This document shows, piece after piece, positions 4,395-37,418 of a stretch of DNA of 64,000 nt (position 1 is the stretch's first letter; the number at the start of each line of letters is the position of its first letter). The DNA comes from Planctomycetota bacterium. GTDB lineage: Bacteria > Planctomycetota > UBA1135. Both the position numbers and the translations under genes were made by a program. The notes under the pieces were generated by a model. The model did no database searches. It saw only the letters and a program-made list of their open reading frames with translations, and was not told the origin of the DNA. The DNA is taken from NCBI GenBank assembly GCA_004295085.1, contig SHNF01000009.1:248001-312000 (forward strand), written 5' to 3'.

Positions 4395-5843
4395 ATGGCC
4401 ACGAGCGTTCCCCCGGCCGCCTCCGCCGAGCACCGCATCGAACGGGATTCCCTGGGGGAGGTGCGTGTTCCCCGGCACGCGCTGTGGGGCGCCCAGACCC
4501 AGCGGGCGATCGAGAACTTCCCGATCAGCGGTCTGAAGCCCATGCCGGTGTACGTCCGGGCGCAGGCGACCATCAAGCGCGCCGCCGCGGAAGTGAACCG
4601 GGACCTCGGCCTGCTGGAGCCGAAGCTGGCGGCGGCCATCCTGCAGGCCGCGGACGAAGTGATCGCCGGCAAGTGGGACGACCAGTTCGTGGTGGATCCG
4701 TTCCAGGCGGGCGCCGGCACCTCGCACAACATGAACTGCAACGAGGTGATCGCCAACCGGGCCAACCAGATCCTCGGCTGCTCCATCGAGGATCCGAAGA
4801 AGCCGGTGGATCCCAACGACCACGTGAACATGGCGCAGTCGACGAATGACACCATTCCGACGGCCATCCGCCTGGGCTGCCTGCTGCGCCTGCACGAGCT
4901 GACCAGCGCCCTGGACAAGCTGGCGGAGGCGTTCCGCCGCAAGGGCGCGGCCTGGAAGGAGCACGTGAAGTCCGGGCGCACGCACCTGCAGGACGCGGTG
5001 CCGGTCACGCTGGGCCAGGAGTTCCACGGCTACGCCACCAGCATCGCCCGCAGCCGCGACAAGATCGTGCTGGCTGCCGACGGGCTGCGGCGTCTGGGCA
5101 TCGGCGGCACGGCCACCGGCTCGGGACTGAACGCGCACCCGGAGTACCACGCGCGCATGGTGCGCAAGCTCGGCGACCTGACCGGGCTCGAGCTGCGCGG
5201 GGCCGAGGACTTGTTCGAGTGCATGCAGTCCATGGGCGACGCCGTGTTCTTCTCCGCGGCCCTGCGCAACCTGGCGGTGGATCTGGGGCGCATCGCCAAC
5301 GACCTGCGCCTGCTCGCCAGCGGCCCGACCACGGGCTTCGACGAGATCCGTCTGCCGGCCACGCAGCCCGGCTCCTCGATCATGCCGGGCAAGGTGAACC
5401 CGGTGATGGCCGAGATGACCAACATGGTCTGCTACCACGTCATCGGCAACGATGCCTGCGTGCAGCAGGCCGGACAGGCCGGCCAGCTCGAGCTGAACGT
5501 GATGATGCCGGTCATCGCCTACAACTTGTTCCAGTCCATGCACCTGTTCATCCACTGCTGCGAGACCTTGCGCAGCCGCTGCATCGAGGGACTGGAACCG
5601 CAGCCGCAGAAGGCCTGGGGCTGGCTGGCCCGGAACCCGATCCTGGTGACCGCCCTCAACCCGGTGATCGGGTACCAGAAGGGCGCGGAAGTGGCCAAGA
5701 CCGCCCTCAAGGAGGGCAAGACCATCCGCGAGGTGGTCGTAGAGAAGGGCTACCTGACCGCGGCCGAGGCCGACAGGCTGCTGGACGCCCGCCAGATGGC
5801 CCGGGGCGGGATCGTGACCGGCGGCGGAGGCGGAGGCGGCTGA
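4395..5843 (+). CDS. aspA: Aspartase/fumarase superfamily lyase, probably aspartate ammonia-lyase
   Basis: A protein of 482 residues. The superfamily signature GSSIMPGKVNP lies at 326-336 with the catalytic serine loop. AGTSHNMN (107-114), HVNMAQSTND, GRTHLQDAVPVTLGQEF and AGQLELNVM resemble aspartases more than class II fumarases, which usually read SGTxSNMN and NFELNVFMPV. Aspartases interconvert aspartate and fumarate plus ammonia. The PGKVNP form also occurs in fumarases and Bacillus-type aspartases, so fumarate hydratase remains possible. An odd feature is the C-terminal tail ending in seven glycines. A strong intrinsic terminator follows about 110 bases after the stop. Confidence 0.85.
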   Translation: MATSVPPAASAEHRIERDSLGEVRVPRHALWGAQTQRAIENFPISGLKPMPVYVRAQATIKRAAAEVNRDLGLLEPKLAAAILQAADEVIAGKWDDQFVVDPFQAGAGTSHNMNCNEVIANRANQILGCSIEDPKKPVDPNDHVNMAQSTNDTIPTAIRLGCLLRLHELTSALDKLAEAFRRKGAAWKEHVKSGRTHLQDAVPVTLGQEFHGYATSIARSRDKIVLAADGLRRLGIGGTATGSGLNAHPEYHARMVRKLGDLTGLELRGAEDLFECMQSMGDAVFFSAALRNLAVDLGRIANDLRLLASGPTTGFDEIRLPATQPGSSIMPGKVNPVMAEMTNMVCYHVIGNDACVQQAGQAGQLELNVMMPVIAYNLFQSMHLFIHCCETLRSRCIEGLEPQPQKAWGWLARNPILVTALNPVIGYQKGAEVAKTALKEGKTIREVVVEKGYLTAAEADRLLDARQMARGGIVTGGGGGGG

Positions 5844-5952
5844 CCGCCTGCTGCCGGCCCGGCCCGGCCACGCCCGGAAAAATCAGTGTCGTGACGGAGG
5901 GGGTTTCCCAATTGAACATCGGAGGCCCTTTCCGCCTTGCAACATTTGCGGG

Positions 5953-5993
5953 CGCAGCCGGCAGGGGGCTACTAGCCGGCTGCGTCCGTTTTT
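5953..5993 (+). terminator. Intrinsic terminator after the aspartase-like gene
   Basis: A perfect 10-bp stem (CGCAGCCGGC at 5953-5962 with GCCGGCTGCG at 5975-5984), a 12-base loop, then TCCGTTTTT. The T-tract exists only on the plus strand, so it serves the plus-strand gene. It ends 5 bases before the priA stop codon on the other strand. Confidence 0.85.
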
Positions 5994-5997
5994 GCCT

Positions 5998-8211
5998 TCA
6001 CAGAGGGTCCACAGTCACGCCGGGCCGCTGGCACAGCTCGTAGAGGACTCCCTGTAGCGGGGCGAGGGCTGGTGGCGGGACGGCCTTGAGCAGGATCTGC
6101 CGCCGCCAGCGGCCGCGCAGCCTCTCCACGGGCGGGGGCGCCGGACCGAGCAGGCTGCAGCCGGGCGCCGGCAGCGCGCGCAAGGCCGCGGCGGCGCCGG
6201 CGGCGAGCTGGTCGGCCTTGGCGGTGACGCCGGCCTCGCACACGATGCGCACCACCCGGGCGAAGGGCGGATAGCCGAAGGCTCGCCGCTCCTCCAGCTC
6301 ATGCCCAGCGAACGCCGGGTAGTCGTGGTGCACCGCCGCCTGCAGGGCCGGATGCTCCGGCCGCCAGGTCTGCACCACCACCTGGCCGCCGCGCGCGCTG
6401 CGCCCGGCCCGCCCGCTCACCTGGGCCACCAGGTTGAAGCAGCGCTCGGCGGCGCGGAAGTCCGGATGGTGCAGGGCCGTGTCGGCGTTGAGCACCCCCA
6501 CCACGGTCACCTCGGGAAAGTCCAGGCCCTTGGCCACCATCTGCGTGCCCAGAAGGAAATCCACGCGCCCGGCGCCGAAGTCCTCCAGCACCTTCTCGTA
6601 GGACTCGCGCCGCAGCATGGTGTCCCGGTCCATGCGGGCGATGCGTGCCCGGGGAAACAGGCGCGCCAGCGCGTCCTCCGCCCGCTCCGTGCCCACTCCC
6701 ACCAACTGGACCGGCTGTCCGCATTCGGGACAACGCTCCGGCGGCGGGAACTCCTGCAGGCAGTAATGGCACAGGGCGCGCCGCCGCCAGCGGTGGTAGG
6801 TGAGCGCCACGTCGCAGCGGCGGCAGTGCACGCTGCCGCCGCAGGCGCGGCAGTGCCAGGCCGGGGCGAAGCCGCGCTGGTTGAGGAACAGGATGGCGCG
6901 CTCGCGGCGCTCCAGTGCCCGCTCCAGCGCCTGCCGCAGCGGCTCGCTCACCACCGTCCAGTGCCCCTGCTCGGGCTTCTGCACGCGCATGTCCACGAGC
7001 GCCACCTCCGGCATGCGGCCTCCGGCCACGCGCCGCGGCAGATCCAGCCGGCGCAGGCGGCCGTCCCGCGCCGCCTGCCAGGACTCCAGCGACGGCGTGG
7101 CCGAGCCGAGCACGCACACGGCGCCTTCCAGCCGCGCCCGCTCCAGCGCGACCTCGCGGGCGTGGTAGCGCGGAGTCTGCTCCTGCTTGAAGGAGCTCTC
7201 GTGCTCCTCGTCCACCACCACCAGCCCGAGCCGGGGCAGCGGAGCGAACAAGGCGCTGCGCGCGCCCACAACGACGTGCAGCCGTCCCTGCGCGATGGCG
7301 GTCCACTGGTCGTGGCGCTCGGCGTCGGTCAGGCCGCTGTGCAGGACCGCCACATCGCCCACGCGCGCGCGGAAGCGCGCCACGGTCTGCGGCGTCAGCG
7401 CGATCTCCGGCACCAGGATGATGGCGCCCCGGCCCAGGTCCAGGCAGCGGCGCAGGGCGCGCAGGTACACCTCGGTCTTGCCCGAGCCGGTGACGCCGAA
7501 CAGCAGGAATCCGGCGTGCCGCCCGGCCTCCAGGGCCGCCAGGATCTCGGCGACGGCGGCCACCTGCTCGCCGCTCAGCTCGGGCGGGCGATCGGGGCGC
7601 ACCGGCGCGTCGCGGAACGGGTCCGACAGCTCCTGGCGGCGCGCGAAGCGCACCACGCCGCGCCGCGCCAGCGATTGCAGCGGCGAGCGCGAAAGCCCGG
7701 TGCGCGCCTGGAACTGCGCCAGCTCCATGGGCCCGCCGGCCGCCTCCAGGTAGGCGGCGGCGCGCTCCTGCTTGGGAAAGCGCTGCGCCAGCTCGCTCTG
7801 CTCCTGCGGCGAGAGCGGGCGCGCCAGCGCCACCACCGGCACGCTGCGCCGCGGGCGCGCGCGCCGCAGCGCCGCCGGCAGCATGGCGCCGAGCGCGTTG
7901 CCCCAGGAGCAATAGGTGCTGTCGGCGATGTGCCGCGCCAGGCGGATCAGCGCCGGCGTCAGCAGCGGCCGCTCGTCCAGGAGTGCCCCCAGCGGCCGCA
8001 GCTTGTCCCTGGGGATCCCTGCCGGGGGGTGCGGGTCCAGGCCCACCACCACGCCCACCAGCCGGCGGCTGCCGAAGGGGACGCGCACGCGGCAGCCGGC
8101 CTCCACGGCCTGCATCTCCGGCGGGACGAGATACGAGAACTCGCGGCGCACGGGCGTATCCAGCGCGACGCGCGCATAACCCAGACCGTCGGCCTGCGGC
8201 GCCGGAGGCAT
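5998..8211 (-). CDS. priA: Primosomal protein N' (replication restart helicase PriA)
   Basis: A protein of 737 residues, the usual PriA length. It has an N-terminal 3'-DNA-binding region (about 1-110), then a superfamily 2 helicase core with Walker A GVTGSGKTE (239-247) and the DEEH box (334-337). Eight zinc-binding cysteines at 454, 457, 463, 466, 481, 484, 494 and 497 are embedded in the helicase, as in all PriA proteins. PriA recognises abandoned replication forks and reloads the replisome. It diverges from no close neighbour; the cysteine-rich lipoprotein gene ends 74 bases upstream on the same strand. Identification is secure. Confidence 0.96.
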   Translation of the reverse strand: MPPAPQADGLGYARVALDTPVRREFSYLVPPEMQAVEAGCRVRVPFGSRRLVGVVVGLDPHPPAGIPRDKLRPLGALLDERPLLTPALIRLARHIADSTYCSWGNALGAMLPAALRRARPRRSVPVVALARPLSPQEQSELAQRFPKQERAAAYLEAAGGPMELAQFQARTGLSRSPLQSLARRGVVRFARRQELSDPFRDAPVRPDRPPELSGEQVAAVAEILAALEAGRHAGFLLFGVTGSGKTEVYLRALRRCLDLGRGAIILVPEIALTPQTVARFRARVGDVAVLHSGLTDAERHDQWTAIAQGRLHVVVGARSALFAPLPRLGLVVVDEEHESSFKQEQTPRYHAREVALERARLEGAVCVLGSATPSLESWQAARDGRLRRLDLPRRVAGGRMPEVALVDMRVQKPEQGHWTVVSEPLRQALERALERRERAILFLNQRGFAPAWHCRACGGSVHCRRCDVALTYHRWRRRALCHYCLQEFPPPERCPECGQPVQLVGVGTERAEDALARLFPRARIARMDRDTMLRRESYEKVLEDFGAGRVDFLLGTQMVAKGLDFPEVTVVGVLNADTALHHPDFRAAERCFNLVAQVSGRAGRSARGGQVVVQTWRPEHPALQAAVHHDYPAFAGHELEERRAFGYPPFARVVRIVCEAGVTAKADQLAAGAAAALRALPAPGCSLLGPAPPPVERLRGRWRRQILLKAVPPPALAPLQGVLYELCQRPGVTVDPL

Positions 8212-9989: not shown

Positions 9990-11072
9990 ATGCAGCCGCG
10001 GCGTCTCGGCGTGTGGGTGGCCGTGCTGGCGGTCCTGTTCTGCCTGCAGCTGGCCTGGTGGGGCTTCGTGATCGTGAGACAGGCCCGGGCCATCCACGAC
10101 GCCCAGGTGGCCGTGCTGTGGGAGCGCAGCCGGCGCGCGCAGGACATCTGGGAGCAGCGCGCGCAGGCCTTGGGGGACCCGGCCGCGGCCTGGAGGGAGC
10201 TGGCCGCCTCCTTCCCCGGCGTGGTGCACGCGCCGCAGAACCGCGAGCAGCCGGTGCAACCCAGCGGCGCCGAGCTGGAGCGCCTGGGCTTGCAGCTCGA
10301 GCGGCGGCGCATCATGGTCATCGGCGAAGGTCTGCTGTTCGCGCTGCTCGTTCTCATGGGCCTGTGGCTGTTGCAGCGCACCGCCCAGCGCGAGGCCTTC
10401 CTCGCCCTGCAGCACCAGAACTTCCTGCACGCCGTGACGCATGAGTTCCGCTCGCCCCTGCAGTCCCTGCGCCTGGCCGTGGAGTCCCTGCTGCGCCGCC
10501 CGGACCGCGCCCGCAGCTACGGCGAGGGCATGCTGGAAGACGTCGGCCGCCTGGAAAGCCTGGTGGAGAACGTGCTGACCGTGGGCCGCCTGGACGCGGA
10601 GGCCTTCCGGGCCGCGCCCGCGCGCATGGACCTGAGTCGCGCCATCCAGGACCGCCTGCAGCGCATGCCCTTGGGAGACGGGGATCCCCCGTCCTGGTTA
10701 CGCACGGTAATCCGGCCGGAGGTGTTCGCCTCCGCCGACGAGGCCAGCCTGGAGCCGATCCTGCGCAACCTCCTGGACAACGCCCGCAAGTACGGCGAGG
10801 GCAAGCCGGTGACCGTGCAGCTCGCGCGCGAGGGCGAGCGGGCGGTGCTGCGGGTGCGCGACCAGGGCCGCGGCTTCACGCCGGAGGAGCGCCGCCACCT
10901 GTTCGAGCGCTTCTGGCGTGCCGGCGACGAGCGCGTGCGCACCGCTCCCGGCGTGGGCCTTGGCCTGTTCCTGGTGGCCGAGCTGGCGCGGGCCCAGGGC
11001 GCGCGCGTGGACGCCCGCAGCGACGGACCCGCCAGCGGGGCCGAGTTCAGCGTATCTTGGCCGGCCGCATGA
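9990..11072 (+). CDS. Membrane sensor histidine kinase
   Basis: A protein of 360 residues from the ATG at 9990. An alternative in-frame ATG at 9957 would add 11 residues. It has two transmembrane helices (about 7-29 and 108-128) enclosing an 80-residue extracytoplasmic sensor. The H-box HAVTHEFRSPL has phospho-acceptor His151. The catalytic ATPase domain shows the N-box (Asn264), G1 DQGRGF (291-296) and G2 GVGLGL (321-326). There is no HAMP domain. The stop overlaps the response regulator start by 4 bases (ATGA), so the two are a cognate pair. The stimulus is unknown. Confidence 0.93.
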   Translation: MQPRRLGVWVAVLAVLFCLQLAWWGFVIVRQARAIHDAQVAVLWERSRRAQDIWEQRAQALGDPAAAWRELAASFPGVVHAPQNREQPVQPSGAELERLGLQLERRRIMVIGEGLLFALLVLMGLWLLQRTAQREAFLALQHQNFLHAVTHEFRSPLQSLRLAVESLLRRPDRARSYGEGMLEDVGRLESLVENVLTVGRLDAEAFRAAPARMDLSRAIQDRLQRMPLGDGDPPSWLRTVIRPEVFASADEASLEPILRNLLDNARKYGEGKPVTVQLAREGERAVLRVRDQGRGFTPEERRHLFERFWRAGDERVRTAPGVGLGLFLVAELARAQGARVDARSDGPASGAEFSVSWPAA

Positions 11073-11779
11073 GTCCCCGCGAAGCCCGCGTCCTGGTCGT
11101 GGAAGACGAAGCCCGCATCGCGCGCCTGCTGTGCGACAACCTGGAGGCGGAAGGCTACCGCGTCATGCACGCCGCGGACGGCGAGGCCGGCCTGCGCGCC
11201 GCGCGCGACGGCGGCATCGACCTGATCCTCCTGGACGTCATGCTGCCCAGGCTGGACGGCTTCGAGGTGTGCCGGCGGCTGCGCGCCGAGGGCAACCGCG
11301 CGCCGGTGCTTTTCCTCACCGCGCGCGACCTGCCCCCGGACCGGGTGCGCGGGCTGCAGGCCGGGGGCGACGACTACCTGGTGAAGCCCTTCCACCTCGC
11401 CGAGCTGCTGGCGCGCGTCGCCGCCCTGCTGCGGCGCGCCGCCTGGTCGGCGGAGCCGGCCGGCGGACGCGTGCGCGTCGGCGCCGGCTGGGCGGATCTC
11501 GTGACGCGCGAGGCCGAGTCCGTGGACGGCGCCAAAGACACCCTCCCCGCCAAGGAGTTCGGCATCCTGCAACTCCTGATCGAGGCCCGCGGCGCGATCG
11601 TCAGCCGCAGCCGCATCCTGGACCGCGTCTGGGGCGGTGAGGCCGACCCGACGCCGCGCACGGTGGACAACTTCGTGGTGCGCCTGCGCCGCCGTTTCGA
11701 GCCCGACCCCGAGAACCCGCGGTACATCCTCACCATCCGCGGCACCGGCTACCGCCTCGTCCCCGCCGATCGCTCCTGA
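11069..11779 (+). CDS. OmpR/PhoB-family response regulator
   Basis: A protein of 236 residues. The N-terminal receiver domain has the acidic pair in VVEDE, phospho-acceptor Asp56 in LLDVMLP and the conserved lysine in LVKPF. The C-terminal winged-helix (about 130-232) ends with the family motif RGTGYRL. The start was set at the ATG that overlaps the kinase stop; a TTG at 11057 is also open. The last 31 bases overlap the tail of the convergent ORF6N gene on the other strand. Target genes are unknown. Confidence 0.93.
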   Translation: MSPREARVLVVEDEARIARLLCDNLEAEGYRVMHAADGEAGLRAARDGGIDLILLDVMLPRLDGFEVCRRLRAEGNRAPVLFLTARDLPPDRVRGLQAGGDDYLVKPFHLAELLARVAALLRRAAWSAEPAGGRVRVGAGWADLVTREAESVDGAKDTLPAKEFGILQLLIEARGAIVSRSRILDRVWGGEADPTPRTVDNFVVRLRRRFEPDPENPRYILTIRGTGYRLVPADRS

Positions 11780-12291
11780 GGCGACACGATGACGCCAGCC
11801 CAGCTCGGCCGTCCCGCCTCGTCCTGCACAAGGGAGCCGACGCACCATGCCACCAGCTCAAGCCGCTCCTTGCCGCGGTACTCAAGGCAGGATTGCAGGA
11901 CACCGGCGGTGGAGAACACCATGGGTGGGCGCCCGCCGCGCCGCTCGGCAATGCGGCATATCGGATAGTAGCGCCGGAACTCGTGGTCATGCAGCCGGAA
12001 GGCAAGCCGCTCGGGATACAGGTCGGGCCGTCGTTCCGTCAGGCGGTTCAGATTGCGCGTTGTCACTCCCAGCAGCGCGGCCACGTCGCAGTCGCGCACG
12101 ACCCACAGCCCGCGGATCTTGCGCCAGTCCAAGGCCACGTCGGGGTAGCAGACGTGGCAGGAACCCATGCTGCACATCGAAACCGTGGCGATTGGTGCCT
12201 TCTCGGCACTCAACAGCAGTCCCAGCAGCTTCCGCCGTCGCTCCAGGTCCGGCTTGACCCTTTCCCATCGCATGCGCGTAGCTCCGGGCAT
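11749..12291 (-). CDS. ORF6N-domain protein (phage/mobile-element type DNA-binding domain)
   Basis: Up to 180 residues from the ATG at 12291. Residues about 57-145 follow the ORF6N pattern: KIRGLWVVRDCDVAALLGV, then TTRNLNR and a GGRPPMVFSTAGVL segment. ORF6N domains are common in phage and mobile-element proteins and are thought to bind DNA. A CX4CX2C cluster (C40, C45, C48) precedes the domain. An alternative start is ATG 12177 (142 residues). It lies exactly at the edge of a 22-base sequence repeated at 37380-37401, and would leave all three local hairpins upstream of the gene. The 3' end overlaps the convergent response regulator gene by 31 bases. The domain call is fairly confident; the role and the start are open. 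Confidence 0.75.
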   Translation of the reverse strand: MPGATRMRWERVKPDLERRRKLLGLLLSAEKAPIATVSMCSMGSCHVCYPDVALDWRKIRGLWVVRDCDVAALLGVTTRNLNRLTERRPDLYPERLAFRLHDHEFRRYYPICRIAERRGGRPPMVFSTAGVLQSCLEYRGKERLELVAWCVGSLVQDEAGRPSWAGVIVSPQERSAGTRR

Positions 12292-12361
12292 CCGCAGGAA
12301 GACGGGAACGGCACGGCTTGGTTACGCACTTCGTCCAGGTGCCAAGACGGCACCAATCGCC
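12187..12361. repeat. 175-bp segment bounded by perfect 13-bp inverted repeats, each in a small hairpin
   Basis: GGCGATTGGTGCC at 12187-12199 is mirrored by GGCACCAATCGCC at 12349-12361. Each end also forms its own hairpin with a 5-base loop: GTGCC-TTCTC-GGCAC (12195-12209) and GGTGCC-AAGAC-GGCACC (12338-12354). The outer flanks are also partly inverted (CGAAACCGT on the left; ATCGTTCG on the right, whose complement is CGAACGAT). The layout could be a small terminal-inverted-repeat element or a REP-like cluster. It lies over the 5' part of the ORF6N reading frame. Confidence 0.7.
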
Positions 12362-12392
12362 ATCGTTCGCGCAATGCAACGCTGGACGCGGT

Positions 12393-12421
12393 GCGATGCG
12401 TGCCACGACGGCACCCATCGC
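12393..12421. repeat. Third, degenerate hairpin of the same family
   Basis: GCGATGCGTGCC (12393-12404), loop ACGAC, then GGCACCCATCGC (12410-12421) form a 12-bp stem with one mismatch. Core sequence, stem size and 5-base loop match the neighbouring hairpins. It sits 19 bases past the stop of the first subtilisin-like gene, without a T-tract, so it is not a standard intrinsic terminator. Confidence 0.65.
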
Positions 12422-12440
12422 GCCGCGCCGCGAACTTGGA

Positions 12441-14384
12441 TCAGTAGGTGACGACGAGGGCGTAGCCCTGGGGACCGACGACCACGTCCCGGCCCTCGAC
12501 CGCGATGGTCCAGGTGCCCGCGGCCGGTGCCGAGAGCAGGACGCCTTCCAGGCTGTTCCTGGGATCGCGCTTGCTCGGGTTGGCGGCGGACTGGCCGGTG
12601 GAAACGTTGAGGACGTTGCCGCGGTAGACCGTGCCGTTGGGCGCGGTGACGATGAGGTCCAGGTCGTTGACCACGGGCTGCGCGGAGAAGGCGCTGCCGG
12701 GCTCGTCCGCGAACGCGAGGTGGATCCTGAGGTTGGCGGGACTGGTCAGGGACACGGGATAGGTATGCGTCTGGCCGTCCGTGAGTCCCTGTGCGTGCGC
12801 GACGTCGGCCACCCACAGCCGGCGCGAGTCGCCGCTGAAGAAGCAGACGTTGTCCAGAAGGATCCGGCCCCAGCCCTCGCGGTAGCCGGGATAGCCGGCG
12901 AAGCCGTTCATGTCGTCGCCGGAGTTGGCCAGGCTGGCGCGCAGCAGCGAGCCGGAGGGCGTGAAGCCGTCCGGAGCGTTGGCGGCGCCGCCCGGGTAGT
13001 AGCCATCCTCGAAGTACTGCTTCAGGAGCGCCGCGGCGCCGGTGACCACCGGGCAGGCCATGGAGGTGCCGCACATGCTGCGGGTGCTGCAGCTTGCGCC
13101 CGACGATGCAGAGTAGGTCGAGCAGCCCGGTGCCCACACCTCCGGCTTGAGGCGTCCATCGGCGGTGGGTCCGCCGCCGCCGCTGCCCAGGTTCTCCTGG
13201 TTGGTGCGGTCGGTGGCACCCACGCCGACGCAGGACTTGGCGTTCTCCGGGTTCTTGATGACGTTCAGGTTGGAAACCGCGAACAGCACCAGGCCGTCCT
13301 CGTTGTCGTGGCAGTAGGCGTCGATGTCCCGGCACCAGTTGTTGTAGGAAGTGGTCGCGTCGCTGCCCCACGAGTTGGTATGGAGGCGGCCGCCGTGGCT
13401 GTGCGCCTCGCTCAGGTACGTGTCCATCGCGCTGCTCGAGGGGAAGTTGCTGTGGTGCACCAGGAACGCGTCGGGCGCGATGCCGTTGCGGAACGTGCCG
13501 CCGTTGACGGGCCGGCTGTCGCCGGCGGCGGAGCCGGCCGTGTGCGTGCTGTGCGAGTCGCTGCCGGAACCGCTGCTCCACCACTTGATCTTGCGGTGAT
13601 TGGGGCCGACGGCGGCGCCGGTCGGGTCGTCGAAGTAGCAGCTCGATTCGTAGATGCGCCCGCCGTCGATGTGGCCCACGCCCACGTTGCGGCCGGTGAC
13701 GCCCAGGTTCCAGAGCTTCATGTTGTTGCTCTGGTTGGTCTGGACCACCCACTCGGACTTGTCGTTGCGCGCCTGGGCCTGCGCGTCCTCCTCGATCCAC
13801 TTGACGCCGGCCAGCCGCGCCATGGCGACGATGTCCTGCGGATACGCGCGCACGTCGGCGCGCTGGTAGCGACCGCCGCTGAAGGATTCCACGACTTCCA
13901 CGCCGAGCGCGCGCAGGCGCTCCTCCTCCGCCAGGACGTCGCGGTCCGGCCAGAACTCGACGGACACCAGCAGGCGCCCCTGGGGATCCCCGGCGGTCGA
14001 GCCGTAGGCGCCGATCTCCGGCGACAGCTTGAAGAAGGGGTGCACCGCCAAGACCGCGGCGGAATCGAGGCGCGCCGCCGCGGGCAGCCAGGCCTCGTAG
14101 GCGTTGTTGGGCACGTAGTCGAACACGCGCCCGCCCAGCGCCTGGATGCGCCCGCGCAGCGCGTGCAGGTCCTGCGGCGCGGCCTGCACGAAGAAGTAGC
14201 CGGCCGCGGCCGCTTCCTCCACGCCGTAGCGGAGCTCGGGCCGCAGCTGCGCCGCGCCCCAGCCCGTGTCCCAGTCACCGGTCTTCAAGGACAGGCGCGT
14301 GGGCGCGTCGAAGCGCGTCATGGCGGGAGCGGCGAGGGGTTCCTGCGCGCAGCAGGCGAGAGACAGTAGCGGGACAAACAACAT
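12441..14384 (-). CDS. Secreted subtilisin-like serine protease (S8), first of a tandem pair
   Basis: A protein of 647 residues. A short hydrophobic N-terminus (possible signal peptide or lipobox, LACCAQ) is followed by a long prosegment to about 200. The catalytic triad is complete: Asp240 in GHIDGG, His281 in THTAGS and Ser441 in GTSMACPVV, with oxyanion Asn372 in SNLN. The region after about 520 (FADEPGSAF, VNDLDLIV, GTWTIAVEG) is a P-domain/PPC-like beta-sandwich, as in Kp43-type subtilases. Family members degrade extracellular protein. It is a paralogue of the next gene upstream (74-base gap). A hairpin repeat follows the stop. Confidence 0.92.
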   Translation of the reverse strand: MLFVPLLSLACCAQEPLAAPAMTRFDAPTRLSLKTGDWDTGWGAAQLRPELRYGVEEAAAAGYFFVQAAPQDLHALRGRIQALGGRVFDYVPNNAYEAWLPAAARLDSAAVLAVHPFFKLSPEIGAYGSTAGDPQGRLLVSVEFWPDRDVLAEEERLRALGVEVVESFSGGRYQRADVRAYPQDIVAMARLAGVKWIEEDAQAQARNDKSEWVVQTNQSNNMKLWNLGVTGRNVGVGHIDGGRIYESSCYFDDPTGAAVGPNHRKIKWWSSGSGSDSHSTHTAGSAAGDSRPVNGGTFRNGIAPDAFLVHHSNFPSSSAMDTYLSEAHSHGGRLHTNSWGSDATTSYNNWCRDIDAYCHDNEDGLVLFAVSNLNVIKNPENAKSCVGVGATDRTNQENLGSGGGGPTADGRLKPEVWAPGCSTYSASSGASCSTRSMCGTSMACPVVTGAAALLKQYFEDGYYPGGAANAPDGFTPSGSLLRASLANSGDDMNGFAGYPGYREGWGRILLDNVCFFSGDSRRLWVADVAHAQGLTDGQTHTYPVSLTSPANLRIHLAFADEPGSAFSAQPVVNDLDLIVTAPNGTVYRGNVLNVSTGQSAANPSKRDPRNSLEGVLLSAPAAGTWTIAVEGRDVVVGPQGYALVVTY

Positions 14385-14458: not shown

Positions 14459-16495
14459 TCAGTAGGTGGCGACGAGGGCGTACCCCTGCGGACCGACCGG
14501 GATGTCCTTGCCTTCCACGGTGACCGTCCAGGTGCCGGCGGCCGGTGCGGTGATGATGACCTGCTCCAGCGTGTTCTTCTGGTCCTGGCGCCGCGGGTCC
14601 GGGATCCACAGCCCGGTCGCGGTGTCCAGGATGTTGCCGTGATAGCGCACTCCGGCCGGATCCCGCACGATCAGGTTGAGATCGTTGACCACGGGATCGG
14701 CGGCGAAGGCGCTGCCCGGCTCGTCGGCAAAGGCCAGGGTGATGCGCAGCTCACCCGCGCCGGCCGGGATGTCGAGCGGGTAGTTGCGCCGCCCGCCGGT
14801 GACCATGCCGTGCGCGTGCATCCGGTCGAGCACGTGCAGGCGGCGCGCGTCGCCGGCGAAGTAGGCGACGCTGTCGACCAGGATGCGGCCCCAGCCCTCG
14901 TTGTCGGTCGGATACCCCGGGAAGGCGCTCACGTCGTCGCCGCAGTTGGCCAGGCAGGCGCGCAGCAGCGAACCGGAGGGTGTGAAGCCGTCCGCGGGGT
15001 TGGCGGCCCCTCCGGGATAATAACCGTCTTCGAAGTACTGCTTGAGCAGGGCCGCGGCGCCAGCGACCAGCGGCGCCGCCATGGAGGTGCCGCAGTCCGG
15101 CACGGTCTGGCAGCCGCTGCCCGCGGCCGCGGACCAGGCACCGCAGCCCGGCGCCATCACTTCGGGCTTGAGCCGCCCGTCGCGCGTGGGACCGCGCCCG
15201 CCGCTGCCGTGCGCCTCCGGATCGTCGCGCTGGGTGGCGGACACGGAGCATGAGGACTTGGCGTTCTCCGGGTTGCGGATGATGCCGCCGTTGCTCACCG
15301 CGAACACGACCAGCGCGTCCTCGTTGTCATGCGAGTACGCGTCGATGTCGCGGCACCAGTCGTCATAGTCGCGGACGTAGTCGTTGCCCCAGGAGTTGGT
15401 GTGGATGCGGGCGCCGTGGCCGTTGGCCTCGTTCAGCATGCCGAGCAGCCCGGTGCTGGTGGGCGTGTAGCCGTGGTGCACGAGGAAGGCGTCCGGCGCC
15501 ATGCCGTCGCGGAAGATGCTGCCGTTGATCGGACGGCTGTCGCCGGCCGCAGAGCCCGCGGTGTGGGTGGCGTGCGGGTCCGCGCCGGAGCCGCCGGACC
15601 ACCACTTGAGCTTGCGGTGCGCCGGCCCGGGCGCGGCGCCGCTCGGATCCTTGAAGTAGCAGCTCTGCTCCCACAGCAGCCCGACGTCGATGTGCCCGAT
15701 GGTCACGCCGGCGCCGCTGACGCCCAGGCGCCACAGCTTCACGTCGTCAGGGAGGTTGGTCTGGATGATCCAGCGCGCGCGGTCGTTGCGCGGCGCCGCC
15801 GTGGCGTTCTCCTCGATCCACTTGACCTGCGGCAGGCGGGCCAGCGCCGCCGCGTCGGCGCTCGAGGCGCGCACGAGCAGCCGCAGGTAGCGGCCCGAGT
15901 CCGCCGTTTCCTCCACGGAGAGCCCCAGCGCGGCCAGTGCGCGGGCGGTCGCGCCGAGGTCGCAGTCCGGCCACAGCTCCACGGCGAGCTGCAGGCGGCC
16001 CAGCGGATCGGTCGCGGAGCTGCGCAGCGCGCCCAGTCCGGGCGCCAGCTTGAAGCCCGGGTGCACGGGCACCACGGTGAGGCCGCCGGCGCGCAGCCGC
16101 GGCACCGCCGCCGCGGGCAGCCAGGCCTCGAATGCGTTGTTGGGCACGTAGTCGAAGGCGCGGCCGCCGGCGTCCAGGATCGCCGCACGCAAGGTGGACA
16201 TGCCTCCCGGGGCGCCCTGGACGAAGTAGTAGCCGGCGGCCTCGGCTTCAGGCGCGGCGTAGCGCAGCGCGGGCGCGGGCGCTGGGACCGTGGAGCGTGT
16301 GTCCCACACGCCGGTCCTCAGGACCATCTGCGTGGCTGCGGCGCCCCGGTCATTGCGGACCAGGGCCGGATCCGCGTCCTGCGCCCTGGGCCGGGCCTGG
16401 AGGGCGGCGGAGGGGGCGAGCAGCACCAGGATCCACGCCGGGACCACGCGACCGGGCGCGCTCCACGAGCTCCGTTCCGGTTCCGGGGCGTTCAT
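14459..16495 (-). CDS. Secreted subtilisin-like serine protease (S8), second of a tandem pair
   Basis: A protein of 678 residues with the same architecture as its neighbour. It has a signal sequence after a 16-residue n-region, a prosegment sharing the block DYVPNNAxEAWLPAAA, and a catalytic domain with Asp270 (GHIDVG), His311 (THTAGS), Asn402 and Ser471 (GTSMAAPLV). A C-terminal beta-sandwich ends in GPQGYALVATY; the neighbour ends in GPQGYALVVTY. The two genes are an obvious tandem duplication, strongly diverged in linker and prosegment. Both are probably exported degradative enzymes. The 379-base region upstream separates it from a divergent metalloprotease pair. Confidence 0.92.
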   Translation of the reverse strand: MNAPEPERSSWSAPGRVVPAWILVLLAPSAALQARPRAQDADPALVRNDRGAAATQMVLRTGVWDTRSTVPAPAPALRYAAPEAEAAGYYFVQGAPGGMSTLRAAILDAGGRAFDYVPNNAFEAWLPAAAVPRLRAGGLTVVPVHPGFKLAPGLGALRSSATDPLGRLQLAVELWPDCDLGATARALAALGLSVEETADSGRYLRLLVRASSADAAALARLPQVKWIEENATAAPRNDRARWIIQTNLPDDVKLWRLGVSGAGVTIGHIDVGLLWEQSCYFKDPSGAAPGPAHRKLKWWSGGSGADPHATHTAGSAAGDSRPINGSIFRDGMAPDAFLVHHGYTPTSTGLLGMLNEANGHGARIHTNSWGNDYVRDYDDWCRDIDAYSHDNEDALVVFAVSNGGIIRNPENAKSSCSVSATQRDDPEAHGSGGRGPTRDGRLKPEVMAPGCGAWSAAAGSGCQTVPDCGTSMAAPLVAGAAALLKQYFEDGYYPGGAANPADGFTPSGSLLRACLANCGDDVSAFPGYPTDNEGWGRILVDSVAYFAGDARRLHVLDRMHAHGMVTGGRRNYPLDIPAGAGELRITLAFADEPGSAFAADPVVNDLNLIVRDPAGVRYHGNILDTATGLWIPDPRRQDQKNTLEQVIITAPAAGTWTVTVEGKDIPVGPQGYALVATY

Positions 16496-21268: not shown

Positions 21269-22912
<1,644 letters not shown>

Positions 22913-22933
22913 GGTCGTACCCACCGTTTTCGT

Positions 22934-37335: not shown

Positions 37336-37360
37336 TGTGGCCCGGTGCTGCGGTGATTCC

Positions 37361-37401
37361 TGGCGATTGGTGCCATTCCGGCACCAATCGCCACGGTTTC
37401 G
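37361..37401. repeat. Perfect hairpin, distant copy of the ORF6N-locus repeat
   Basis: TGGCGATTGGTGCC (37361-37374), loop ATTCC and GGCACCAATCGCCA (37380-37393) form a perfect 14-bp stem. Bases 37380-37401 are the exact reverse complement of 12178-12199 (22 bases), so this is a related repeat and not a chance palindrome. It lies in the 83-base gap between archease and the OPT transporter gene. No T-tract follows on either strand. Confidence 0.8.
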
Positions 37402-37418
37402 CAGGCGCCTGCCGGCGG

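What the first reader, a model, noticed from the sequence alone, without database searches (positions are those of the whole stretch)
12178..12421. Cluster of three related hairpins forming a terminal-inverted-repeat layout at the ORF6N locus
GGCGATTGGTGCC (12187) and its exact inverse (12349-12361) bound 175 bases. Each end is also a small hairpin with a 5-base loop, and a third degenerate hairpin lies at 12393-12421. This could be a minimal transposable element, a REP-type cluster, or structured RNA upstream of the ORF6N gene. Tandem structured RNA before a small gene also recalls RNA-antitoxin layouts; this is speculation.
Basis: partly seen in the sequence, partly recalled or inferred. Interest (0 to 1): 0.6.

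Follow-up and report, generated by a model that had tools for sequence, protein, structure and literature searches.

The report
Dispersed palindromes tied to ORF6N genes
The three hairpins are copies of a short DNA palindrome repeated about 30-38 times in this genome, mostly just after the ends of genes, and they sit beside a small regulator-like gene (ORF6N) whose relatives across bacteria usually carry a palindrome in or beside their own gene, so that gene's protein may be what recognises them.

Summary
GGCGATTGGTGCC and its exact inverse bound 12187-12361, each with a 5-base-loop hairpin. The third hairpin (12381-12433) is not degenerate: it is the most stable and highest-scoring of the three. 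All belong to a genome-specific repeat family, GGAAACCGTGGCGwTTGGTGCC-N5-GGCACCAAwCGCCACGGTTTCC, with 29 copies at E<=0.01 and about 38 in all. The loop is almost always 5 bases but its sequence is free. Copies favour gene 3' ends and avoid divergent gaps, have no U-tract, and the genome has no detectable RAYT transposase. Thirty relatives lack the family. By anatomy it is REP-like.

The ORF6N neighbour looks more than accidental. All five members of its subfamily (three genomes) have inverted repeats near their start, and in each genome these belong to a dispersed repeat, with a different sequence per genome. Canonical ORF6N genes elsewhere (39 of 45; then 11 of 12 in named plasmids) carry a 27-bp covarying palindrome inside the coding sequence, some with a second one upstream. 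It is not forced by the peptide. The inference is that ORF6N proteins bind cognate palindromes and that this genome holds a dispersed set. Binding is untested. The RNA-antitoxin idea is unsupported.

The parts
12176..12228 (+). Copy B of the repeat (half copy): intact outer arm CGAAACCGTGGCGATTGGTGCC 12178-12199, loop 12200-12204, GGCAC 12205-12209; inner arm decayed
   Evidence: family model 39.2 bits, E 6.2e-7; arm identities 21 and 10 of 22
12322..12372 (.). Copy A of the repeat (half copy), inverted to copy B: stem GGTGCC 12338-12343 / loop 12344-12348 / GGCACCAATCGCC 12349-12361; outer arm intact, inner arm decayed
   Evidence: family model 40.1 bits, E 3.7e-7; arm identities 9 and 18 of 22; pairs with copy B as a 29-nt, 86% inverted repeat
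12381..12433 (.). Copy C, a full palindrome with a stem of about 20 bp, 7 bp after the subtilase stop codon
   Evidence: 53.4 bits, E 1.5e-10; fold z -5.3 and -5.9; gene distances
37351..37403 (.). Fourth copy of the repeat in the window, a full palindrome in an 83-bp gap between two minus-strand genes
   Evidence: 59.4 bits, E 4.5e-12; gap
11749..12177 (-). ORF6N-domain gene next to the repeats (an in-frame longer reading starts at 12291)
   Evidence: Pfam PF10543 E 1.9e-7; stop overlaps the response-regulator stop by 31 bp
12441..14384 (-). Subtilase gene whose stop codon precedes copy C
   Evidence: Pfam Peptidase_S8 E 1.4e-22
11057..11779 (+). Response-regulator gene, convergent with ORF6N
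   Evidence: Pfam Response_reg and Trans_reg_C

Best explanation
Shown: the three hairpins are members of a genome-specific, dispersed REP-like palindrome family of about 30-38 copies. Copies are mostly extragenic, often just after stop codons, have a fixed 5-base spacer of free sequence, and exist as full palindromes, half copies and inverted pairs. Shown: the ORF6N gene beside them belongs to a small subfamily whose five known members all have inverted repeats beside their start, and canonical ORF6N genes carry palindromes, in most cases inside the gene at a fixed position and in some also upstream. Inferred: the ORF6N protein is a sequence-specific DNA-binding protein that recognises the dyad (GGTGCC-N5-GGCACC in this genome). 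Bound next to its own start it would regulate its own gene; at the dispersed copies at gene 3' ends it would act as a roadblock or local organiser, or simply be titrated by selfish repeats. How the copies spread is unknown; no RAYT-type transposase was found.
For: Dispersed family with controls; 2 of 25 intergenic copies in divergent gaps against 34% of intergenic sequence, 9 of 25 in convergent gaps against 17%; constant 5-base spacer with free sequence, as expected of a dyad read by a protein. Association: all three G000 paralogs have an arm matching the repeat consensus (shuffle p<=0.005); the ORF6N-linked repeat is dispersed in G013 (20 sites, control 0) and G017 (6 sites, control 0) but absent from the ORF6N-less congener G005; inverted repeats at all five loci exceed the 95th percentile of random windows; ORF6N absent from the same LeuRS-UbiD gap in a congener. 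General link: in-gene palindrome in 39 of 45 canonical genes with changes on both sides of most pairs, not forced by the peptide (mean 11.7 pairs against 5.7 in synonymous recoding), and in 11 of 12 ORF6N genes of named plasmids. A strict search for the canonical form finds it in G501 (286 kb) only at its ORF6N gene, in none of 956 kb of four relatives, and in G000 in four copies of the repeat and at its canonical ORF6N gene.
Against: No binding data and no usable structure model. The window subfamily lacks the in-gene palindrome. Only part of the G000 copies fit the strict canonical form, and a shared core could be chance; in G013 the linked repeat is a MITE of a different shape. The association was noticed after looking, and ORF6N genes and repeats share the same niche (gene 3' ends). 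Most copies of the repeat have no ORF6N gene nearby. Shuffle tests show little true covariation within the G000 family itself.
Confidence: 0.5

Rival explanations
1. Ordinary REP-like (untagged) palindromic repeats, mobile or formerly mobile, with no functional tie to ORF6N; the ORF6N gene merely occupies the same kind of gap.
For: Anatomy, placement and genome specificity fit REPs (PMC3733652); half-decayed copies look like neutral decay; most copies are far from any ORF6N gene.
Against: The chance that two of three ORF6N paralogs carry a copy in their own 5' gap is about 2e-4 before allowing for niche, and the layout recurs in two other genomes with different repeats. Does not explain the palindromes of canonical ORF6N genes.
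Confidence: 0.35
2. Bidirectional transcription terminators or 3'-UTR stability hairpins that have become alike by copying.
For: Many copies lie 1-25 bp after stop codons and nearly fill convergent gaps; strong stems.
Against: No U-tract at 11700-12900 nor after the other copies; 12 of 37 copies have lost one arm; other genes of the genome have unrelated strong hairpins, some with T-rich tails; two copies lie in divergent gaps and four inside called genes.
Confidence: 0.1
3. Structured RNA specific to ORF6N, such as a leader or RNA antitoxin.
For: The minus-strand RNA of 12170-12430 folds better than shuffles (z -5.4), because the inverted arms and copy C pair.
Against: No Rfam match; the same element occurs at about 35 other places without ORF6N; mismatches in the in-gene palindromes of canonical ORF6N show no sense-strand G-U preference (3 sense, 8 antisense, 8 other), which does not favour an RNA stem.
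Confidence: 0.04

Closest known systems
REP elements, GTAG super-family with RAYT / TnpA-REP (REPINs, BIMEs)
   Same: Short extragenic palindromes, singly and in inverted pairs, mainly after genes and in convergent gaps, genome-specific; an associated gene beside some copies.
   Different: No unpaired GTAG tag; no Y1 transposase found in the genome; the gene beside the repeats is ORF6N, not a tyrosine transposase; stems of up to about 20 bp.
CGTC-tagged REPs and untagged REP-like palindromes (PMC3733652)
   Same: 5-base loops, no dedicated transposase known, 20-100 copies in many families.
   Different: Published CGTC stems are 8-9 bp with an unpaired CGTC tag and a short tail; here CCGTGGC or CCGTCGC lies within the arm and is paired in full copies.
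Bacterial MITEs
   Same: The ORF6N-linked repeat of relative G013 is MITE-like: 170 bp, 29-bp inverted ends, dispersed, with an empty site in a congener.
   Different: The window's element is about 50 bp with no interior, and no target duplication or empty site was shown for it.
Autoregulatory operators lying inside and upstream of a gene (gal/lac-type operator pairs, from general knowledge)
   Same: Canonical ORF6N genes have a palindrome inside the gene and in some a matching one upstream.
   Different: Binding not tested; in the window the sites are only upstream and dispersed.

Membership tests
REP (general) | Short dispersed palindromes, many copies per genome | tested here: met
   29 places at E<=0.01, about 38 up to E 1; full form about 50 bp, slightly longer than the usual 20-40 bp
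REP (general) | Extragenic, mainly downstream of coding regions and in convergent or same-strand gaps | tested here: met
   25 of 29 intergenic; 2 of 25 divergent, 9 of 25 convergent
GTAG REP with RAYT | Unpaired GTAG-type tag at one end | tested here: not met
   arms carry GTGGC or GTCGC, paired in full copies
GTAG REP with RAYT | RAYT (Y1 transposase) in the genome, flanked by the repeats | tested here: not met
   no PF01797 match in G000 while 5 of 14 control genomes match; assembly 90% complete
CGTC REP | Unpaired CGTC tag, 8-9 bp stem, 4-5 base loop, short tail | tested here: not met
   loop of 5 fits; tag pairing and stem length do not (PMC3733652)
Intrinsic terminator | G+C-rich hairpin followed by a U-tract | tested here: not met
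   0 terminator-like sites at 11700-12900; no T-runs after other copies
MITE | Terminal inverted repeats with interior, target-site duplication, empty sites | tested here: inconclusive
   no interior and no syntenic empty site found for this family
Known structured RNA | Match to a described family | tested here: not met
   no Rfam match at E<=1 in 11500-13000
ORF6N domain protein | Pfam PF10543 above cut-off | tested here: met
   31.7 bits against cut-off 27.8
ORF6N cognate operator (proposed here) | Specific binding by the ORF6N protein | not testable with these tools
   needs a binding assay

The most novel reading that the evidence does not exclude
ORF6N genes across bacteria and their viruses carry their own cognate DNA palindrome, usually embedded in the coding sequence at a fixed position and kept palindromic by compensatory changes, sometimes with a matched copy upstream. 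In the window's lineage the palindrome has left the gene and spread through the genome as a REP-like repeat, making ORF6N the partner of a palindrome family in place of a RAYT.
Probability: 0.35. Interest if true: 0.8.

Novelty: new variant of a known kind. Interest (0 to 1): 0.6.

Why it matters
ORF6N is a common bacterial and viral domain with little described function: only two papers in the searched library use the phrase 'ORF6N domain' and none holds both ORF6N and 'palindrome'. A conserved, covarying palindrome inside the gene gives a direct, testable candidate for what the protein recognises. In this genome a related kind of site is dispersed at gene ends, which would make ORF6N a candidate partner for REP-like repeats that lack a known transposase, an open question stated for CGTC REPs (PMC3733652).

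Tried and rejected
RAYT search: none found. Rfam: none. Genome-contig scan for the palindrome: one hit, Desertimonas flava, a lone hairpin after a stop codon, judged chance. Profile scan of genome contigs with A2 could not run for lack of a conserved stretch. The second inverted repeat at the G013 ORF6N locus (CCCTCCGGCTTTTCTGCC) is not dispersed. De novo search for other repeated palindromes in samples of four relatives: nothing comparable. Orthologous gaps that might show empty sites for the window's family: none found. DNA-uptake-sequence idea: rejected, since apparent single-arm copies are about as rare as the control. ORF6N relatives in phage records or viral contigs by the window protein: none. 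Structure prediction: mean pLDDT 33 and 48, so no fold search was made. A Pfam scan of a whole locus strand failed for stops.

Full report
1. Observation. The third hairpin is the strongest of the three, not a degenerate one: the element at 12381-12433 has a stem of about 20 bp and folds far better than shuffles (z -5.3 and -5.9 on the two strands), while the other two are half copies that keep one outer arm each.

2. The repeat. Searching the whole genome (4.1 Mb, 18 contigs; window 71% GC) gave 39 sites for the 13-mer with one mismatch against 4 for the reversed control and 34 sites for the gapped core against 3. A covariance model built from 16 copies finds 29 distinct places at E<=0.01 and about 38 up to E 1; only the best 150 of 3282 first-look candidates were scored, so some weak copies may be missed. 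The consensus is GGAAACCGTGGCGwTTGGTGCC-N5-GGCACCAAwCGCCACGGTTTCC. The loop is 5 bases in nearly all copies though its sequence is free; the core GGTGCC/GGCACC hardly varies. Of 37 copies, 16 have both arms at 15 or more of 22 bases, 12 have one such arm and 9 neither. Pairing on the seed alignment is 79% against 31-40% when slid by 1-3 columns, but shuffle controls show little true covariation: within this family it is the sequence that is conserved.

3. Placement. With a hexamer-based gene caller that I trained on the fetched regions, 25 of the 29 strong copies are intergenic: 9 in convergent gaps (17% of intergenic sequence), 14 between same-strand genes, 2 in divergent gaps (34%); p = 0.018 and 0.003. 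Most lie within 25 bp of a stop codon. No U-tract follows, and other genes of this genome have unrelated strong hairpins, some with T-rich tails. No Y1 transposase (RAYT) is found. Thirty relatives, 18 of them of the same family, lack this repeat. This is REP-like anatomy (PMC3733652) without the GTAG or CGTC tag.

4. The ORF6N neighbour. The gene next to the hairpins (11749-12177 or longer, minus strand) is ORF6N by Pfam. A profile of its subfamily scores above 200 bits in only three genomes: three paralogs here, one gene in G013, one in G017. All five are tail-to-tail with a neighbour, stop codons overlapping or within 4 bp. All five have an inverted repeat upstream that exceeds the 95th percentile of random windows of the sampled genomes. 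In G000 the left arm at all three paralogs matches the repeat consensus (shuffle p<=0.005). In G013 the linked repeat is a 170-bp MITE-like element with 20 sites (control 0), often abutting stop codons, with an empty site in congener G122. In G017 the linked arm occurs at 6 places (control 0) and nowhere in congener G005, which lacks the gene. The LeuRS-UbiD gap that holds ORF6N in G000 and G013 is about 80 bp and has no ORF6N in G122. So the layout recurs, with a different repeat in each genome.

5. ORF6N genes and palindromes in general. Upstream of several canonical ORF6N genes from other families of the phylum lie palindromes of the form CTTGAGRT..CA-N3-TG..AYCTCAAG. A scan of viral contigs for that form led to the finding that such a palindrome is commonly inside the ORF6N coding sequence. 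At a fixed place, about 165 nt from the start of the domain profile, 39 of 45 canonical genes have a near-perfect palindrome of up to 27 bp, against 11% of random windows (a few genes, such as L268 and L280, are near-identical). Its pairs change in step; pair 4 is A-T in 16, C-G in 14, G-C in 7 and T-A in 1, with 38 of 39 paired. In L114 and L121 the palindrome is kept while the encoded peptide differs. Synonymous recoding of the same peptides gives 5.7 of 13 pairs against 11.7 observed, and in 33 of 39 genes none of 500 recodings reaches the observed number. A separate set of named plasmids (Bacteroidota, Campylobacterota, Legionella, Fusobacteriota, Butyrivibrio, Treponema) shows it in 11 of 12 at 9 or more of 13 pairs (background 13%), with nearly the same palindrome inside and upstream in Butyrivibrio pCY186. 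Mismatches do not favour sense-strand G-U, so a double-stranded DNA site is more likely than an RNA stem, though the numbers are small.

6. Synthesis. Shown: the dispersed family, its placement, the recurrent ORF6N layout, and the in-gene palindromes. Inferred: ORF6N proteins recognise these dyads, and in this genome the cognate dyad has left the gene, lies upstream and has multiplied REP-like. One canonical gene (L117) has the same GGTGCC-N5-GGCACC core as the window repeat. A strict search for the canonical form finds, in 347 kb of G000 chosen around the copies, four copies of the repeat plus one site at the canonical ORF6N gene; none in 956 kb of four relatives; and in 286 kb of G501 only the two sites at its ORF6N gene. 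But only some copies of the repeat fit that strict form, the window subfamily has no in-gene palindrome, and the link was noticed after looking. What happens at the dispersed sites (roadblock, organisation, or selfish spread) remains open.

7. Limits. The tools did not name the organism; the assembly is 90% complete; gene calls are my own; relatives beyond family rank were sampled; there are no binding, expression or mobility data for the window's repeat.

Noticed in passing
Canonical ORF6N loci L107-L134, L061-L099, L264-L281, L304-L315: A palindrome of up to 27 bp inside the ORF6N coding sequence at a fixed position, with both arms changing in step; in some genes a matching palindrome lies upstream.
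   Followed up: partly
L281 (viral contig), ORF 5658-6221: The palindrome-encoded segment appears twice in tandem in one ORF6N gene (LRSQIMTAERG... then LRSQFVTSRWGG), the first copy degenerate, the second perfect, as if the palindrome had been duplicated or inserted in frame.
   Followed up: no
L254-L258, L265, L267, L277, L282 and similar viral contigs: An intergenic palindrome CTTGAGGTCTCAAATTGAGACCTCAAG in AT-rich viral contigs, with no ORF6N gene in the fetched flanks.
   Followed up: no
L069-L088 (genome G013): A 170-bp MITE-like element with ends GGACACTGACACAATCGGCTGGGTCAC; several copies directly abut stop codons, and one has an empty site in a congener.
   Followed up: partly
L164:1390-1545 (genome G017, contig C62): The ORF6N-type arm forms part of a long, nearly perfect inverted repeat that flanks a terminator-like hairpin.
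   Followed up: no
window 22912-22926 and L136, L147, L151, L161: A second short motif, GGGTGGGTACGACCC and variants, recurs near gene ends and near some copies of the palindrome.
   Followed up: no
window 12441-14384 and 14459-16495: Two related subtilase-like genes in tandem on the minus strand.
   Followed up: no
G000:C7:91197-104217 (L152) and C1:837624-838078 (L140): Local clusters of the repeat: five copies in 13 kb, and up to four within about 460 bp.
   Followed up: no
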